Source of the DNA: a bacterium HR40
GTDB taxonomy: Bacteria; Pseudomonadota; Alphaproteobacteria; Geminicoccales; Geminicoccaceae
NCBI GenBank assembly: GCA_002898275.1
Contig: BEIQ01000003.1
Span: 1 to 64,000, forward strand
DNA length: 64,000 bases
Reading direction: 5' to 3'
Made by a program: the position numbers and the translations under genes. The notes under the pieces were generated by a model. That model had not been told where the DNA came from. It worked only from the letters and a program-made list of their open reading frames with translations, and made no database searches. The first letter of the stretch is position 1. Each line of letters opens with the position of its first letter. Positions 57,436-64,000 of this stretch are shown in pieces.

Positions 57436-57606
57436 GCGGGGCGCAGGGAATGGCCCGTGCGCGGTCGGGGACGCTTTCGCGGCGCAGTAAGCCCTTTACA
57501 GCCGCGGCGAATTCCCCCATATCGCGAGCCCCGTTCAGCCCAAGCACTGCGGCGCGCGCGGCGGCGGCTGACTGATCGTCTCGACTCGACCGGTTGGGAG
57601 GTCGGT

Positions 57607-58773
57607 ATGGCTGAGTGGCTCGGCAGCGCCGTGGCGCTGCACACGCGTGTTGCGGACGCAACCCCGCTCGTCCTCGTCCGGCCCCGGCAGATCCGGGCGC
57701 GGGCCCAGCGCGTCCTCGCCGCTTTTCCCGGCGAAGTGCTCTATGCCGTCAAGTGCAACGACGCGCCGGAGGTCCTCGATGCGCTGGTGGCGGGTGGGAT
57801 CCGCGGCTTCGATGTCGCCTCCATCGGCGAGATCCGCAACCTGCGCCAGCGCTTCGGCGAGCACATCGCGCTCGCCTTCATGCACCCGGTCAAGCCTGCG
57901 CCAGCCGTGCGCGAGGCCTATTTCGCCCATGGCGTGCGGCGCTTCGCCTTCGACCACCCGGACGAGCTCGCCCGCATCCGTGCCGCAACCGACGGAGCCG
58001 GGGACCTCGAGCTCGTGGTCCGCATCGCCGTCTCCGGCGAAGGCTCGGCCCTGCCGCTTTCCGGCAAGTTCGGCGCCACCCCCGAAGAGGCAGTGGCTCT
58101 GCTGCGCCTCGCCCGTCCCCACGCCCGCAGCCTCGGCCTCACCTTCCACGTCGGCTCGCAGTGCACCGAGCCTGCGAGCTTCGAGCGCGCGATCGCCCTT
58201 GCCGGCGAGATCGCTCGACGGGCCGGGGGCATCGACCACCTCGATGTCGGCGGGGGCTTTCCGGCCCGCTACACGGGCAGCGAGCCAGCGTTCGAGAGCT
58301 TCGTTCAGGCGATTCGGCGCGCCGTGCAGCGCGCCGGGCTGGGCCATGTCCGTCTCGCCTGCGAGCCCGGGCGGCTGCTCGTGGCCGACGGAGCCTCCGT
58401 GCTCACCCGCGTGGAGCTCAGACGCGGCCACAGCCTGTTCCTCGACGACGGCATCTACGGCAATCTCGCCGAACTGCGCTGGCTCGGACCTTGCTTCCCG
58501 ATCCGCGCCTTGCGCGACGGCCGGGTGCTGCACGGCCCGTCCGCCGACTTCGAGCTCTTCGGCCCGACCTGCGATTCCATCGACAGCATGCCAGGCCCCC
58601 ACCGCCTGCCCGAGGGTGTGCGGGCGGGTGACTTGCTCGAGGTGGGTATGGCCGGCGCCTACACCTGGGCCCTGAGGACACGCTTCAACGGCTTCCCCGA
58701 GGCGCGCCGGTTGTCGGTCGACGACCCCGCCTGGTACCTGCGAGAGGATCCGCAGGTCGCGCGCGCCGCTTGA
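57607..58773 (+). CDS. Type III PLP-dependent decarboxylase (ornithine decarboxylase-like)
   Basis: 388 residues, alanine-racemase fold. PLP lysine in VLYAVKCNDAPEVL; phosphate-binding GGGFPARY and CEPGRLLVADG; the second-subunit Cys/Asp motif GPTCDSIDSMPG; and the last block AGAYTWALRTRFNGF. The short length and lack of LysA-type inserts favour ornithine (or lysine/ornithine) decarboxylase making putrescine. The ATG at 57607 has gggagg 5 bases upstream. It is divergent from gyrA and followed by a clear terminator. Confidence 0.9.
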   Translation: MAEWLGSAVALHTRVADATPLVLVRPRQIRARAQRVLAAFPGEVLYAVKCNDAPEVLDALVAGGIRGFDVASIGEIRNLRQRFGEHIALAFMHPVKPAPAVREAYFAHGVRRFAFDHPDELARIRAATDGAGDLELVVRIAVSGEGSALPLSGKFGATPEEAVALLRLARPHARSLGLTFHVGSQCTEPASFERAIALAGEIARRAGGIDHLDVGGGFPARYTGSEPAFESFVQAIRRAVQRAGLGHVRLACEPGRLLVADGASVLTRVELRRGHSLFLDDGIYGNLAELRWLGPCFPIRALRDGRVLHGPSADFELFGPTCDSIDSMPGPHRLPEGVRAGDLLEVGMAGAYTWALRTRFNGFPEARRLSVDDPAWYLREDPQVARAA

Positions 58774-58895: not shown

Positions 58896-59756
58896 TTAGC
58901 GCCCCATCTCGGCGCGGATCGCGGCGATCTCCTCGTCGGACGGGGCCGCGAGCAAGAACCGCAGGTCGATGCGGCGGTTGCGACGACGGCCTTCCGGCGT
59001 CGCCTCGGCGACCGCTGGTCGGCGCGCCTCATAGGCCGCGATTCCGAGCAAGGCTTCGCCGCGCGCGTTGCGCAACAGTTCCAGGGCAGGCTCGAATCCG
59101 ACGAGGGCGGTGAAGGTGTGGACACCGCGGGCAGCGGAAAGCTCCCAGTTGTCGCGGAAGGGACCGCCCTGCACCGGTACGTCGTCGGTATGTCCTTCGA
59201 TCAGCACCGCCTCGAGGATCGGTTGGGCTCCCTCCGGGCAGTGAGCCTGCAGAGCTGGCGGCGCGGCGCTGTAGCAAGGCAGTACCCGGACGAGGGCTGC
59301 GGCGAGTTCCCGCAGCGCGCGTTCGCCATCGCCGCGAAGCACGGCACTCCCGGAAGCGAACAGCAGTTCCTCCGGCAGCCGCAGGATGCCCTCTTCGGGC
59401 GAGAGTGCCACCCGCACCTCTCGCGCCGCGAGCAGCTCCACCACATCCTGGAGCATCTGGAGCCTTCGGCTCTCGCGACCGGCGAGGCGTTGCAGCACTT
59501 CCCCCACCGTGCGGCGTTCGGCCAGCAGCCGGTCGCGCTCGGCCGCGAGCCGCTGCCGCTCCTCCTGGGTTTGGGCGAGTTCCTGGAGGAGCCGCTGCGC
59601 CTCGACCCCGGCGTTGCGTTCAGCCACCCGGAAATTGAGGGCGAAGGCCATGAGCAGTATGATGAAGACGAACAACAGCCCGACCATGAGGTCGGACACC
59701 GAGGCCAGGTAGTTCCCCTCCTCGCCACCGGCGCGATCGGGCGCACCGACCTTCAC
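58896..59756 (-). CDS. ZorB-like OmpA/MotB-domain motor protein
   Basis: 286 residues. One transmembrane helix near the N terminus (residues about 20-42) is preceded by S-V-S-D-L-M-V-G, placing an Asp where MotB carries its proton-binding Asp. A helical linker rich in Arg/Glu/Leu follows, then a C-terminal OmpA-like peptidoglycan-binding domain: ILEAVLIEGHTDDVPVQGG, NWELSAARGVHTF and RRRNRRIDLRFLL. The GTG start overlaps the stop of the ZorA-like gene as GTGA. The pair would form a membrane proton channel anchored to the cell wall. No ZorC/D/E gene follows; the next gene is convergent. Confidence 0.83.
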   Translation of the reverse strand: MKVGAPDRAGGEEGNYLASVSDLMVGLLFVFIILLMAFALNFRVAERNAGVEAQRLLQELAQTQEERQRLAAERDRLLAERRTVGEVLQRLAGRESRRLQMLQDVVELLAAREVRVALSPEEGILRLPEELLFASGSAVLRGDGERALRELAAALVRVLPCYSAAPPALQAHCPEGAQPILEAVLIEGHTDDVPVQGGPFRDNWELSAARGVHTFTALVGFEPALELLRNARGEALLGIAAYEARRPAVAEATPEGRRRNRRIDLRFLLAAPSDEEIAAIRAEMGR

Positions 59757-61144
59757 CCTCCGCCTCCCGCACTCGATGGCGGCCGCAGCTCGCCATAGCC
59801 GAGCCGTTCGAGCTCGCGGCCGGTAGCAGTCAGCGCGGCCTCCAGTCGGGAGAGGACCGCGCCTTCGGCTTCGCGGCCGACCTGGTCCGTTCGGGCGAGC
59901 TCGGCCCGCAGGCGGCGGACCGCCTGCAAGCCGTCGTGGAGCCGCACCCACAGCTCGCGCAACACCGGCACGAGCTCGGCGCGGGCACGCTCGTCGCTAG
60001 CCGTCGAAAGCCGCTGCCAGACGGCCCGCAGTTGCTCGCCCAGCCGTTCGAGCAGGCTGGCGGCCCGCTCGACCGTCGTCCATGATTCCGGCTGCGCCGG
60101 CGACGTCGCGTCGCCCCCGCCTTTCGCCGACGGCCCCGGAGAGGACTGTGCCATCTCGAGCAGCCGGCGGATCTCCCGCAGCTCGTCCAGCACCGACCGA
60201 CCGAGATCGCGCTCGCCCACTACCTCCACTCGGGGAAGGGTCGGGCCCTGCCACCGCCGGGCCGGCTCGGGCTGGGCGATGTGCCCGAGCCACGAAGGAT
60301 CGCGGCCGAGACGCAGGGCGAGCTCGGCGATGGCCGCGCGCAGGGGTGCGACAGCCTCGCGCAGTTCTCGCTCGAGCTGCTCCTCGACGCGTGCCGGCAA
60401 GTCGTGGAGCCCCGTCCCGACGAGCCGCTGCAACTCCGTCGACTGCCGGCGCAGTTCTTCGATCTGCACGAGGGCGAGGCTCTCGCTGGTGAGCGGTACG
60501 GTGCGCGCCTCGAGGGCGTGGCAGAAGCGCAAAATCCGTGCCTGCACCCGGTGCAGTTGCGTTTTCTCCCGCCAGGAGAAGAGGATCGAACTCGCGAGCC
60601 CGGCGATCGAGGTGGCGAACTTGAAGGTCGCAGCCGCCAAGAGGTCGCCGAGAGCCGACTGGGCGACCGCCACGTCCGGGGCCCGTACGCCGCCGCTGGC
60701 GAAATGGAGGGCGGCGATGAGACCGACGAAGGTGAACAGCAGCCCGAGGCCGACCAGCAGGTTGGGTACGGCCTGATAAAACCTCAGGTTGAAGCCGCTC
60801 GCCAGCAGCAGACTTTCGTCGAAATGTTCCTGGGGCCGCCGCGTATAGCCCAGGACCTCGGTCGGGCGGGGTGCGGGCTCGAGCGTCGGAGCGAAGGCCC
60901 GCCAGGCGCCACCGACCACGGGATTGTCCGCCAGGGCTCGCGAGATGGTGGCGAAGCGATTGCGAAAACCGGCCGGGCCGTCGCTCTCTTCCACGACCGC
61001 GATCGCCCGGTCGAGGGCGTCGAGGACGACGGCGAGGCGACTGCGGAACACCCCCCAGATCACGAGCGCCCCGCAGGCAATGGCTGCCGAGAGCAGCCAC
61101 GGCAATTCCGGTCGTGCTAGAAGTCGGAAGAGATCGTCGCTCAC
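59753..61144 (-). CDS. ZorA-like MotA/TolQ/ExbB-family proton channel protein
   Basis: About 463 residues. Three membrane segments are seen: ELPWLLSAAIACGALVIWG, then VPNLLVGLGLLFTFVGLIAA, and then ATFKFATSIAGLASSILFS, the latter two matching the MotA/TolQ/ExbB channel helices. The order and the long cytosolic tail of about 260 residues (coiled-coil-like, with RVEEQLERELREAVAPLR and repeated Leu/Arg/Glu) resemble ZorA of Zorya defence systems. The GTG at 61144 has ggaacggg upstream; an ATG six codons earlier has no ribosome site. Coupled to the ZorB-like gene; divergent from the EAL gene. Confidence 0.8.
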   Translation of the reverse strand: MSDDLFRLLARPELPWLLSAAIACGALVIWGVFRSRLAVVLDALDRAIAVVEESDGPAGFRNRFATISRALADNPVVGGAWRAFAPTLEPAPRPTEVLGYTRRPQEHFDESLLLASGFNLRFYQAVPNLLVGLGLLFTFVGLIAALHFASGGVRAPDVAVAQSALGDLLAAATFKFATSIAGLASSILFSWREKTQLHRVQARILRFCHALEARTVPLTSESLALVQIEELRRQSTELQRLVGTGLHDLPARVEEQLERELREAVAPLRAAIAELALRLGRDPSWLGHIAQPEPARRWQGPTLPRVEVVGERDLGRSVLDELREIRRLLEMAQSSPGPSAKGGGDATSPAQPESWTTVERAASLLERLGEQLRAVWQRLSTASDERARAELVPVLRELWVRLHDGLQAVRRLRAELARTDQVGREAEGAVLSRLEAALTATGRELERLGYGELRPPSSAGGGG

Positions 61145-61389
61145 GCTGCCCGTTCCGCGCATGCGGGCGGGGCCGCCCGCTCGCTCTCGGCATCTCCTGC
61201 CGCGGCAAAGATCGATCCGCCAGTCGTCGGCCGCAAGAGTCGTACCTCGATGCCCGTTCGCTGTCGCGGCGCGACATCGCTCGCCTCGGATGTTCGCCTA
61301 GAACTTGCGACCCACCGGCTGTGGCCCTATTTCTGAGCCATTGCTGGAGGGTCCGCCCCAGTGCCCAGCGCGACGAGCCGGATCGGTCC

Positions 61390-63522
61390 ATGGCCGAGGT
61401 AGTGGTCGTCGACGACCGCGTCACCAACCGCAACATCCTCGCCCGGCTCGCCCAGTCGGTCGAGGAGGGGGTGGTGGTGCGGACCTTCGCCAGCGCCCGC
61501 GAGGCCCTGCAGGCGATGCTGGCGGCCCCGCCTCCGGATCTCATCGTCACCGACTACAGCATGCCGGAGATGGACGGGGCGACCTTCGTCACCCTCGTGC
61601 GCTCGCAGCCCGGCTTCGAGGACCTGCCGATCATCGTCGTCACCGTCTACGAGGAGCGGGATTTCTGCTATCGCGCGCTCGAGGCAGGGGCCACCGATTT
61701 CCTCCTCAGTCCCGTCGACCATGTGGAGTTCCGCGCCCGCGTCCGCAATCTTCTCACTCTGCGGCGGCAGCAGAAGATGCTGGCGCAGCGCGCGGCGCAG
61801 CTGGAAGAGGTGCTCAAGCAGCAGCCCCACCCCGGGTTCTGGGGCCCGCAGGCGGACTTGCGCCTTCTCCTCGACTCCCTTCCGGCCGCGATCAGTGTCG
61901 CCGACGAGCAGGGTCGGCTCGTCTACGTCAATCCGGCCTACGCCGGACTGTTCGCGACCACGCCCGAGCGGCTCGTCGGCCGCCTCATCGGCGAGGCCCA
62001 TGGCGAGGACTTCGCCACCCGGCACGCGGTGCTCAACGAGAAGGTGATGCAGTCCGGCCGCCCCCTCTTGCTCCCCAACCGGGAGCTGCTCGAGAACGGG
62101 CAGGAAACCCACGCTCTGCTCACCGTCAAGACCCCGCTCGACTGCCCCACCGGCCTGGGTCGGTGGGTGGTGTCGCTGTCCCTCGACGTCTCCGGCCTCG
62201 ACTTCGCCCAAGGCGAGCGACGGCGGGCCCACGATCCGCTCACCGGATTGCCCGGCGAGGAGATGATCCGGGAGCGCCTCGCCGAAGAGCTGGTGCGCGG
62301 CCGCCGTCATGGTCGCATGGTGGCACTCCATCTGCTCGACCTGGACCGTTTCAAGGGAATCGTCGAGGCCTTTGGCGACACCTTCGGCGACGAGCTGCTC
62401 GCTGCGGTAGCTCGGCGCCTCGCCGACCGGCTGCGCGAAACCGACTATCTCGGCCGGGTCCGGAGCGACGAGTTCGCCATGATCCAGACCGGCATCACCC
62501 GCATCGACGATGCCGCGGAGCTGTGCCGACGGGTGAGCGAGGCCTTCGCCGAGCCCTTCGTCGTGGCGGGACGGGAGGTCCATCTCAGCGCCAGCACCGG
62601 CATCACGCTCTTTCCCGGCGACGGGCGGACGGTCGAGACCCTGTTCAGGAACGCCGAGCTCGCCCTCATGCGCGCCAAGAAAGGCGGGCGCGACACCTAC
62701 CGGTTCTTCGCTGCCGAGATGAACACGGCGGCGCGCCGGGCCGTGGCTCTCGAACGCGAGCTGCGCCAGGCGCTCGCCGCCGATCAGTTCCTGGTCCACT
62801 ACCAGCCGAAGGTCGACCTCCACAGCGGGCGCGTGATCGGCATGGAGGCGCTACTGCGCTGGAACCACCCGCACCGCGGCGTCGTCCGGCCGGGCGAATT
62901 CATCGGCCTTGCCGAGGACATCGGTCTCATCGTGCCACTCACCCACTGGGTGCTGCAGTCGGCTTGCCGGCAGCTGCGCGAATGGCTCGCGATGGGTGCC
63001 CGCGGCCTCCAGCTGTCGGTCAATCTCTCGCCGGTCCACTTCCGCGAGCGCGGCATCGAATTCATGATCGAGCGGGTGCTCGCCGAGAGCGGCGTGCCAC
63101 CCCATCTCTTGGAACTCGAGTTGGTCGAGAGCGCGGTGATCGACAACACCCGCACCGCGCACGCGAGCTTGCGCTATCTGCAGAAACTCGGGGTGCAGCT
63201 CGCCATCGACGACTTCGGCACCGGCTACTCCTCGCTCTCCTACCTGCGGCGCCTGCCGGTGCATCGGCTCAAGATCGATCAGTCCTTCGTCCACAATCTC
63301 GAAAAGGGCTCGAGCGACGAAGTGATCGTACGGGCGATCATCGGCCTCGGCCACAGCCTCGACCTCAGGGTAGTGGCGGAAGGCGTGGAAACCGAGGCCC
63401 AGCTCGCGCGCCTGAGGGAGCTCGGCTGCGACGAGGCGCAAGGGGACTTCGTCGGGCCGCCGATGTCGGCCGAGGAGTTCGAAGAACGCTGCGTGCGGCC
63501 GCTGCTCGCAGCCGCGGAGTGA
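61390..63522 (+). CDS. REC-PAS-GGDEF-EAL cyclic di-GMP signalling protein
   Basis: 710 residues, soluble. An N-terminal receiver (VVVVDDRVTNRNIL; phospho-Asp in IVTDYSMPEMDG) has Ser where the conserved Lys is expected (FLLSPVD). A PAS domain follows (SLPAAISVADEQGRLVYVNP). The GGDEF domain has R-S-D-E-F in place of GGDEF and is likely inactive or a GTP sensor. The EAL domain is intact: GMEALLRWNHP, AIDDFGTGYSSLSYL and VVAEGVETEAQL. The protein is therefore predicted to break down c-di-GMP under control of phosphorylation. The sensor kinase gene begins 4 bases after its stop. Confidence 0.9.
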   Translation: MAEVVVVDDRVTNRNILARLAQSVEEGVVVRTFASAREALQAMLAAPPPDLIVTDYSMPEMDGATFVTLVRSQPGFEDLPIIVVTVYEERDFCYRALEAGATDFLLSPVDHVEFRARVRNLLTLRRQQKMLAQRAAQLEEVLKQQPHPGFWGPQADLRLLLDSLPAAISVADEQGRLVYVNPAYAGLFATTPERLVGRLIGEAHGEDFATRHAVLNEKVMQSGRPLLLPNRELLENGQETHALLTVKTPLDCPTGLGRWVVSLSLDVSGLDFAQGERRRAHDPLTGLPGEEMIRERLAEELVRGRRHGRMVALHLLDLDRFKGIVEAFGDTFGDELLAAVARRLADRLRETDYLGRVRSDEFAMIQTGITRIDDAAELCRRVSEAFAEPFVVAGREVHLSASTGITLFPGDGRTVETLFRNAELALMRAKKGGRDTYRFFAAEMNTAARRAVALERELRQALAADQFLVHYQPKVDLHSGRVIGMEALLRWNHPHRGVVRPGEFIGLAEDIGLIVPLTHWVLQSACRQLREWLAMGARGLQLSVNLSPVHFRERGIEFMIERVLAESGVPPHLLELELVESAVIDNTRTAHASLRYLQKLGVQLAIDDFGTGYSSLSYLRRLPVHRLKIDQSFVHNLEKGSSDEVIVRAIIGLGHSLDLRVVAEGVETEAQLARLRELGCDEAQGDFVGPPMSAEEFEERCVRPLLAAAE

Positions 63523-63526
63523 TCCC

Positions 63527-64000
63527 GTGAGGTCCGCCGAGCCGGCGCGGAAAACTCGCGCCGCCAGCGCGACCACTGGCGGGAGCGCGATCGCACGCAC
63601 CTTCGCGTGGCTGCACGGGCGTCTGTCCGGTCGGCCGGACAGCGAGCATGAGCAGGCGATCATCCGCATCGTCGTCATCTGCGGCATGTATGCCTACATG
63701 CTGCTCGCACCTTTCCCGCCCGCCGAGCGCGAGGTCGTCGTCTTTTGGAGCTCGCTGCTGTTCGCGGCGGGCATGTTCGCCAGCCTCGGCATCCTCGGGC
63801 ATATCCTCTGGCAGCCCGGGATCTCGCCGGTTCGCCGCGTGATCGGCATCGTCGTCGATGCGGCGGGCATCAACGGCGCCATGCTGATCGGCGGGATCCT
63901 GACGACCCCGTTCTATCCGCTGCTTCTGTGGATCATCTTCGGGCACGGCTTCCGCTACGGCAACCGCTACCTCTTCACTGCCGCCACTCTGTCGCTAGCC
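63527..64000 (+). CDS. RpfC-like membrane sensor histidine kinase, N-terminal part
   Basis: The first 158 codons are in the window; the frame is open to the edge. After a basic N terminus comes LHGRLSGRPDSEHEQAIIR and then several hydrophobic helices (IVVICGMYAYMLLAPF, VVFWSSLLFAAGMFASLGIL, GINGAMLIGGILTTPFYPLL). The PDSEHEQA and FGHGFRYGNRYLF segments match the membrane sensor of RpfC, the receptor for diffusible-signal-factor fatty acids. Kinase and receiver domains would follow outside. The GTG start is 4 bases after the EAL gene, so they form a two-component pair. Confidence 0.8.
   Translation, partial: MRSAEPARKTRAASATTGGSAIARTFAWLHGRLSGRPDSEHEQAIIRIVVICGMYAYMLLAPFPPAEREVVVFWSSLLFAAGMFASLGILGHILWQPGISPVRRVIGIVVDAAGINGAMLIGGILTTPFYPLLLWIIFGHGFRYGNRYLFTAATLSLA

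What the first reader, a model, noticed from the sequence alone, without database searches (positions are those of the whole stretch)
58896..61144. Orphan ZorA/ZorB-like motor pair without known Zorya effectors
The two overlapping genes encode a MotA/TolQ-type channel with a long helical tail and a MotB-type protein with a membrane Asp and an OmpA-like domain. This is the architecture of the ZorAB module of Zorya anti-phage systems. Known systems add ZorC and ZorD, or ZorE, but the next gene downstream is a convergent decarboxylase and upstream is a divergent c-di-GMP/RpfC signalling pair. It could be a motor of a new minimal or split system, or a housekeeping energy-transducing pair.
Basis: partly seen in the sequence, partly recalled or inferred. 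Interest (0 to 1): 0.75.

Follow-up and report, generated by a model that had tools for sequence, protein, structure and literature searches.

The report
Zorya-type motor pair without its effectors
A bacterium carries the membrane motor of a known anti-phage defence system without that system's usual DNA-attacking partners, and relatives have inherited it at the same chromosomal spot, which suggests the motor was taken over for another job in the cell.

Summary
Window 58896-61144 (-) encodes a ZorA/ZorB-type pair whose genes overlap by 4 nt. Best profile matches are Zorya I ZorA and ZorB, not MotAB or TolQR, which the genome encodes elsewhere. ZorC and full-length ZorD are absent from this genome; both occur in 5 of 31 family genomes, all of one other genus. 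The ZorA tail is about 190 residues, against about 460 in a solved type I protein.

The pair is no stray fragment. It occurs in 13 of 31 family genomes (6 genera), with a divergent REC-PAS-GGDEF-EAL gene next door in 12 of 13. It is one clade, its tree follows GyrA (5 of 6 splits, 9 taxa), and it is under purifying selection. It sits inside a conserved stretch, NUDIX-(FIST)-EAL-kinase; in 12 genomes lacking the pair, NUDIX or FIST lies directly beside EAL.

So the signalling genes are older at this site than ZorAB, and the link to c-di-GMP is positional, not shown functional. Best reading: a Zorya-type motor, vertically inherited and probably re-used for a cellular task. A reduced defence system with effectors in trans is not excluded; phage protection was not testable here.

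The parts
59753..61144 (-). ZorA-like motor subunit (463 aa from GTG 61144; 469 aa if ATG 61162 is used): membrane/collar head about residues 1-275, then a ~190-residue tail of variable linker and partly conserved C-terminal helices
   Evidence: PADLOC ZorA1 5e-43; PDB ZorA chains are the top hits; relatives' alignment A1; AlphaFold model of low confidence, mean pLDDT 63
58896..59756 (-). ZorB-like subunit (286 aa from GTG 59756): one TM helix with the conserved Asp, long helix, OmpA/MotB-type peptidoglycan-binding domain with an invariant Cys pair
   Evidence: PADLOC ZorB1 5e-78; Foldseek best match type I ZorB 8vvn_B, E 2e-12; alignment A2
59753..59756 (-). 4-nt GTGA overlap of the zorA stop and zorB start (translational coupling inferred)
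   Evidence: sequence; same overlap in L027-L029, not in L030, L031, L036-L039
61145..61389 (.). Divergent intergenic region; promoter-like motif TTCGCCTAGAACTTG at 61293-61307 (+), 97 nt upstream of the EAL gene, also found upstream of EAL in genomes without ZorAB
61390..63522 (+). REC-PAS-GGDEF-EAL response regulator; EAL motifs intact, GGDEF degenerate (RSDEF), so probably a c-di-GMP phosphodiesterase (inferred). Conserved neighbour, older than ZorAB at this site
   Evidence: Pfam; motifs; distribution
63527..64000 (+). RpfC-like hybrid histidine kinase (HisKA-HATPase-REC-Hpt); continues to about 66112 of contig C3. Conserved neighbour
   Evidence: Pfam; family-wide search
57457..58773 (+). 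PLP-dependent Orn/DAP/Arg decarboxylase ORF, convergent with zorB; no counterpart found at the other ZorAB loci
   Evidence: Pfam

Best explanation
The two genes encode an ion-driven inner-membrane motor of the ZorA5B2 type: five ZorA-like subunits around two ZorB-like subunits, anchored to peptidoglycan by ZorB, with a cytosolic tail shorter than in Zorya I. Shown: homology to ZorAB over the motor core and periplasmic anchor, conserved Asp and Ser/Thr-bearing motifs, absence of ZorC, full-length ZorD and ZorF, one clade at one chromosomal site, a tree that follows the marker, purifying selection. Inferred: that it assembles 5:2 and turns, that ion flow moves the tail, and that the tail works on a cellular partner rather than on ZorC/ZorD. 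I think it most likely does a constitutive envelope or signalling task in this bacterial family, having been taken from a Zorya-type ancestor.
For: Profile and structure matches to ZorA/ZorB. Separate TolQ, MotA, MotB-like and PomA-like proteins are encoded elsewhere in the genome. ZorC in 5 of 31 family genomes, all genus g6, in none of the 13 with the orphan pair; full-length ZorD only in the same 5. Orphan pair in 13 of 31 genomes, 6 genera; divergent EAL neighbour in 12 of 13. Orphan ZorA (13 rows) and ZorB (11 rows) each one clade, support 100 and 86. ZorAB tree shares 8 of 10 splits with GyrA+EAL+RpfC (13 taxa) and 5 of 6 with GyrA alone (9 taxa), 0 of 5000 shuffles as good. dN/dS in five pairs: ZorA head 0.10-0.22, ZorB 0.18-0.21, tail 0.27-0.47. 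Of 72,556 plasmid records 1 had a match at E 1e-5, over 43% of the query.
Against: No function was measured. The ZorA tree puts the clade with other-class orphans (support 95) while the ZorB tree puts it with alphaproteobacterial Zorya I (support 95), so 'derived from Zorya I by loss of ZorC/D' rests on ZorB alone. Absent from some relatives (G008, G026, G011, G013, genus g6), so it is not essential to the family. The tail evolves faster than the head. Chromosomal stability does not by itself exclude defence.
Confidence: 0.6

Rival explanations
1. Reduced or split Zorya defence: the motor senses phage entry at the envelope and recruits effectors encoded elsewhere (for example a SNF2 helicase or a nuclease).
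For: The motor core is Zorya-type. A SNF2-type helicase occurs in the genome at C2:530625, 38% identical to ZorD over the helicase domain only. The NUDIX gene beside ZorB in relatives has a weak match to a phage-defence candidate model (PDC-S07, 30 bits, E 7e-8), though NUDIX is a common domain.
Against: The helicase match also occurs in family genomes without any ZorAB (G008, G009, G016, G018, G024, G026). Deleting any component abolished Zorya I protection (PMC11890865, section 6 part 1). The fixed site and marker-like tree are unlike the patchy spread usual for defence systems (general knowledge).
Confidence: 0.2
2. The motor is the output or input of the neighbouring two-component c-di-GMP module: the kinase/EAL regulator controls ZorAB, or ZorAB reports envelope state to it.
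For: Divergent adjacency to the EAL gene kept in 12 of 13 genomes over 6 genera.
Against: The EAL ortholog occurs in 28 of 31 family genomes, 12 of them with NUDIX or FIST directly beside it and no ZorAB there. The motif upstream of EAL is found in 8 of 14 genomes without the orphan pair. In G014 ZorAB stays beside NUDIX while EAL and kinase lie on another contig. Adjacency may be only the inherited insertion site.
Confidence: 0.15
3. Decaying remnant of a Zorya I operon that lost zorC and zorD.
For: ZorC/ZorD absent; shorter, faster-evolving tail.
Against: No stop codon inside any listed match; dN/dS below 0.5 in head, ZorB and tail; persists across 6 genera.
Confidence: 0.03
4. Ordinary flagellar stator or TolQR/ExbBD energiser.
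For: Same 5:2 superfamily; the ZorB OmpA-like domain matches MotB models.
Against: ZorA models are the only strong matches of the first protein; no MotA_ExbB Pfam match; the genome has its own MotA/MotB-like pair and TolQ.
Confidence: 0.02

Closest known systems
Zorya type I anti-phage system (ZorABCD)
   Same: ZorA head, ZorB TM Asp and peptidoglycan-binding domain; ZorB groups with alphaproteobacterial Zorya I
   Different: No ZorC or full-length ZorD; ZorA tail ~190 residues against residues 237-696 in Shewanella ANA-3; inherited at one site
Orphan ZorA-like proteins of other-class genomes in the same phylum (e.g. L147, L154, L167, L168)
   Same: ZorA-type head and a ZorB-like partner, no ZorC found in the stretch read; same side of a supported branch in the ZorA tree
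   Different: Separate clade; many have whole open frames of 1000 to over 4500 residues; no EAL/kinase block of this kind seen beside L147, L154, L167
Flagellar MotAB / PomAB
   Same: 5:2 motor superfamily; OmpA-like peptidoglycan anchor
   Different: No flagellar model fits the ZorA-like protein; MotA and a MotB-like protein are encoded separately
TolQR / ExbBD
   Same: 5:2 motor superfamily, adjacent genes
   Different: ZorB has an OmpA-like domain; TolQ is encoded separately
Zorya types II and III
   Same: ZorAB motor plus variable partners
   Different: ZorA2/ZorA3 and ZorB2/ZorB3 models score far lower; no ZorF domain in the genome; ZorE not seen among scanned neighbours, not searched genome-wide

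Membership tests
Zorya type I | ZorA motor head | tested here: met
   PDLC00605 E 5e-43, best stretch residues 20-280; but below the NCBIfam cut-off (149 against 190 bits)
Zorya type I | ZorB with TM Asp and peptidoglycan-binding domain | tested here: met
   PDLC00610 E 5e-78; motifs; fold
Zorya type I | Long ZorA cytoplasmic tail | tested here: not met
   ~190 residues after the head; best PADLOC stretch ends at 280. Type I tail is residues 237-696 (PMC11890865). A profile of the orphans does align weakly along PDB ZorA tails, which may be coiled-coil likeness
Zorya type I | ZorC (EH_Signature) | tested here: not met
   No PF15611 match in own genome or in any of the 13 orphan-pair genomes; present in 5 of 31
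Zorya type I | ZorD | tested here: not met
   Full-length ZorD only in the same 5 genomes; own genome has only a helicase-domain match
Zorya type I | Protection against phage | not testable with these tools
   needs an experiment
Zorya type II | ZorE nickase next to ZorAB | tested here: inconclusive
   No ZorE among 10 neighbour proteins scanned with PADLOC; no genome-wide search
Zorya type III | ZorF (DUF3348) | tested here: not met
   No PF11828 match in own genome; 0 of 31 over cut-off, 1 weak match below it in G019
Flagellar MotAB | MotA/MotB equivalog match | tested here: not met
   No MotA model among the matches of the ZorA-like protein; MotB models for the ZorB-like protein far below cut-off (best 61 against 300 bits)
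TolQR/ExbBD | MotA_ExbB domain, TolQ/ExbB equivalog | tested here: not met
   Not among the 4 PF01618 matches of the genome; no match

The most novel reading that the evidence does not exclude
A phage-defence rotary motor has been permanently domesticated in a bacterial family: stripped of its DNA-attacking partners, its tail shortened and re-tooled with a conserved C-terminal helical module, and fixed beside a c-di-GMP two-component switch to turn ion flow into an intracellular signal or envelope movement.
Probability: 0.25. Interest if true: 0.75.

Novelty: new variant of a known kind. Interest (0 to 1): 0.5.

Why it matters
In the passages I read ZorAB appears only as a part of anti-phage systems, and a phrase search for orphan, standalone or ZorA-like/ZorAB-like pairs returned no paper from the held library. 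A lineage that keeps the motor alone is a natural test of what the motor does without ZorC/D, of which tail features are needed for effector recruitment, and of whether defence motors are taken over for housekeeping. It also warns that ZorA/ZorB profile hits alone should not be annotated as Zorya defence.

Tried and rejected
Rejected: flagellar or Tol/Ton assignment. Rejected in its strong form: 'EAL/RpfC as the dedicated new partner', because the pair is widespread in the family without ZorAB. Rejected: a regulatory element made for the divergent pair. The motif TTCACCT-N3-ACTTG upstream of EAL is present with 2 or fewer mismatches in 18 of 27 upstream regions (a 28th, G024, was cut to 2 nt): 10 of 13 with the orphan pair, 8 of 14 without. 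Mononucleotide shuffles gave 0.4% per region. I chose the motif by eye from the ZorAB-bearing regions, so only the 14 others test it, and six of the eight positives there are one genus (g6). My first regex had the wrong spacer; its result is void.

Led nowhere: the genome-contig scan gave only two named loci; L046 matches G025's contig (same length, proteins 100% identical) and is labelled a Rhodospirillales MAG. The AlphaFold model of ZorA used three sequences and is of low confidence; I draw only rough secondary structure from it. No multi-chain prediction was run. The Nature 2025 Zorya structure paper was not held.

Of the wider matches I fetched 40 loci, not all; several stretches are cut by contig ends, so 'no ZorC' there is weak.

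Full report
OBSERVATION. The window encodes on the minus strand a ZorA-like ORF (59753-61162, likely GTG start 61144) and a ZorB-like ORF (GTG 59756 to 58896), overlapping by four bases. PADLOC ZorA1 matches best over residues 20-280 at E 5e-43, and ZorB1 matches nearly the whole second protein at 5e-78. NCBIfam antiphage_ZorA_1 scores 149 bits, under its cut-off of 190. Pfam gives no MotA_ExbB match for the first protein, and OmpA is just under its cut-off for the second (26.6 against 27.2 bits). The best PDB relatives are ZorA and ZorB chains, and Foldseek of the ZorB model (mean pLDDT 81) finds type I ZorB 8vvn_B first (E 2e-12). The genome's TolQ and MotA (both over cut-off), a MotB-like protein (268 against a cut-off of 277 bits) and a PomA-like protein (below cut-off) are separate loci.

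WHAT IS MISSING. EH_Signature (ZorC) is absent from this genome and from all 13 genomes with this type of pair; it is present in 5 of 31 family genomes, all in one genus. Full-length ZorD is in the same five only; other matches, one in the window's genome, cover the helicase domain and also occur in genomes without any ZorAB. DUF3348 (ZorF) is over cut-off in 0 of 31. Ten proteins from the locus and from relatives' conserved neighbourhoods were scanned with PADLOC: there were hits of common domains (NUDIX to candidate PDC-S07, E 7e-8; HTH proteins to RmrA and capH, best E 1e-10; kinase domains, best E 3e-5) and no Zorya effector. ZorE was not searched genome-wide.

DISTRIBUTION. Searching 96 relatives (this genome included) with the ZorA-like protein gave 19 genomes with a match: 13 of the orphan type (this one included), 4 with Zorya I in genus g6, and 2 outside the family (G065, G043). 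ZorB agrees: 17 of 31 family genomes, 12 orphan-type and 5 Zorya I; the thirteenth, G028, has its contig end inside zorA. Neighbourhoods point to an ancestral block HTH-NUDIX-(FIST)-EAL-kinase-ECH. In twelve genomes without the orphan pair (G002, G004, G005, G008, G009, G010, G016, G018, G023, G027, G029, G030) NUDIX or FIST is directly beside EAL; five of these carry Zorya I elsewhere. In the orphan genomes ZorB-ZorA lies between: NUDIX or FIST is seen on the ZorB side in 7 (G001, G007, G012, G014, G015, G020, G025); in G006, G017, G022 and G028 the contig ends first; in G021 and in the window's genome no NUDIX or FIST was found there, the latter having the decarboxylase and gyrA. EAL is next to ZorA in 12 of 13. 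The kinase follows EAL in those, though in G028 only a 62-residue match is seen at the contig end. In G014 EAL and kinase lie on another contig while ZorAB stays with NUDIX.

INHERITANCE. Orphan ZorA is one clade (13 rows, support 100) and orphan ZorB one clade (11 rows, support 86) among 60 and 46 sequences. The ZorAB tree shares 8 of 10 splits with the GyrA+EAL+RpfC tree and 5 of 6 with GyrA alone; 0 of 5000 label shuffles did as well in either case. EAL and RpfC are linked to ZorAB, so GyrA (9 of the 13 taxa) is the independent test. The simplest history is one insertion and later losses (G008, G026, and the branch of G011, G013 and genus g6); two gains are not excluded, some nodes have low support, and G026 (89% complete) and others are incomplete assemblies.

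SELECTION AND TAIL. Pairwise dN/dS in five pairs from two trios of close relatives: ZorA head 0.10-0.22, ZorB 0.18-0.21, tail 0.27-0.47, EAL 0.07-0.10, kinase 0.17-0.35. The tail is a variable linker followed by partly conserved helical stretches; the model is too weak to say more. In type I Zorya the tail is residues 237-696, and both it and the ZorB peptidoglycan domain are needed for defence (PMC11890865, section 6 part 1 read).

NEIGHBOURING SIGNALLING PAIR. The regulator has intact EAL motifs and a degenerate GGDEF in the window's genome (RSDEF), so it is probably a phosphodiesterase. Its ortholog is in 28 of 31 family genomes, and a near full-length kinase ortholog in 28 of 31. A motif upstream of EAL is conserved with and without ZorAB (10 of 13 and 8 of 14 regions). 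The signalling pair was therefore there first, and a functional link to the motor is possible but not shown.

WIDER VIEW. In 385 genomes of the class, 12 had a match. Of the 9 outside the family, all 9 have ZorC beside ZorAB and 8 a ZorD-type match; the ninth is G065. Of 6 further same-class genomes in the phylum search, 5 loci were read: four have ZorC and one (G584, L140) does not. L045 (G043, a 3.6-kb contig) also shows no ZorC. So the orphan type looks particular to this family within the class as sampled. In other-class genomes of the phylum, 20 of 27 loci read had no ZorC in the stretch, some cut by contig ends, and many of their ZorA-like frames are very long. They form clades of their own, but in the ZorA tree most share a supported branch with the window's clade.

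LITERATURE. Searches for Zorya terms, rotary motors and orphan/ZorA-like phrases showed, in their listings and the passages I read, no description of a stable ZorAB-only lineage; the library is partial. [quoted passage not shown] The MotAB evolution paper (passages) leaves ZorAB placement open.

VERDICT. A real, conserved, Zorya-derived or Zorya-related motor pair without its effectors; function most likely cellular, unproven.

Noticed in passing
L146-L172, other-class genomes of the same phylum: Many genomes carry one to three ZorA-like genes, often with very long open frames (1000 to over 4500 aa), several with a ZorB-like gene and no ZorC in the stretch read; they form clades apart from Zorya I. 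Function unknown.
   Followed up: partly
L167 (4511-6927) and L168 (7329-9700): Short orphan ZorAB-like pairs (476/329 and 469/321 aa) of the window pair's size in another class, but a different clade.
   Followed up: partly
L140 (7580-9153, genome G584): A same-class ZorA-like protein of only 277 aa followed by a divergent ZorB-like protein, with no ZorC: nearly tail-less.
   Followed up: partly
L004 (855-2172, contig C3:83253-86513): A MotA_ExbB-domain protein of 239 aa with no NCBIfam match at E 1e-5, followed by an overlapping 207-aa protein with one hydrophobic stretch: another unnamed motor-like pair in the same genome.
   Followed up: partly
window 61293-61307 and upstream of EAL orthologs: Promoter-like motif TTCACCT-N3-ACTTG upstream of the REC-PAS-GGDEF-EAL gene in 18 of 27 upstream regions of the family, with and without ZorAB.
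   Followed up: yes
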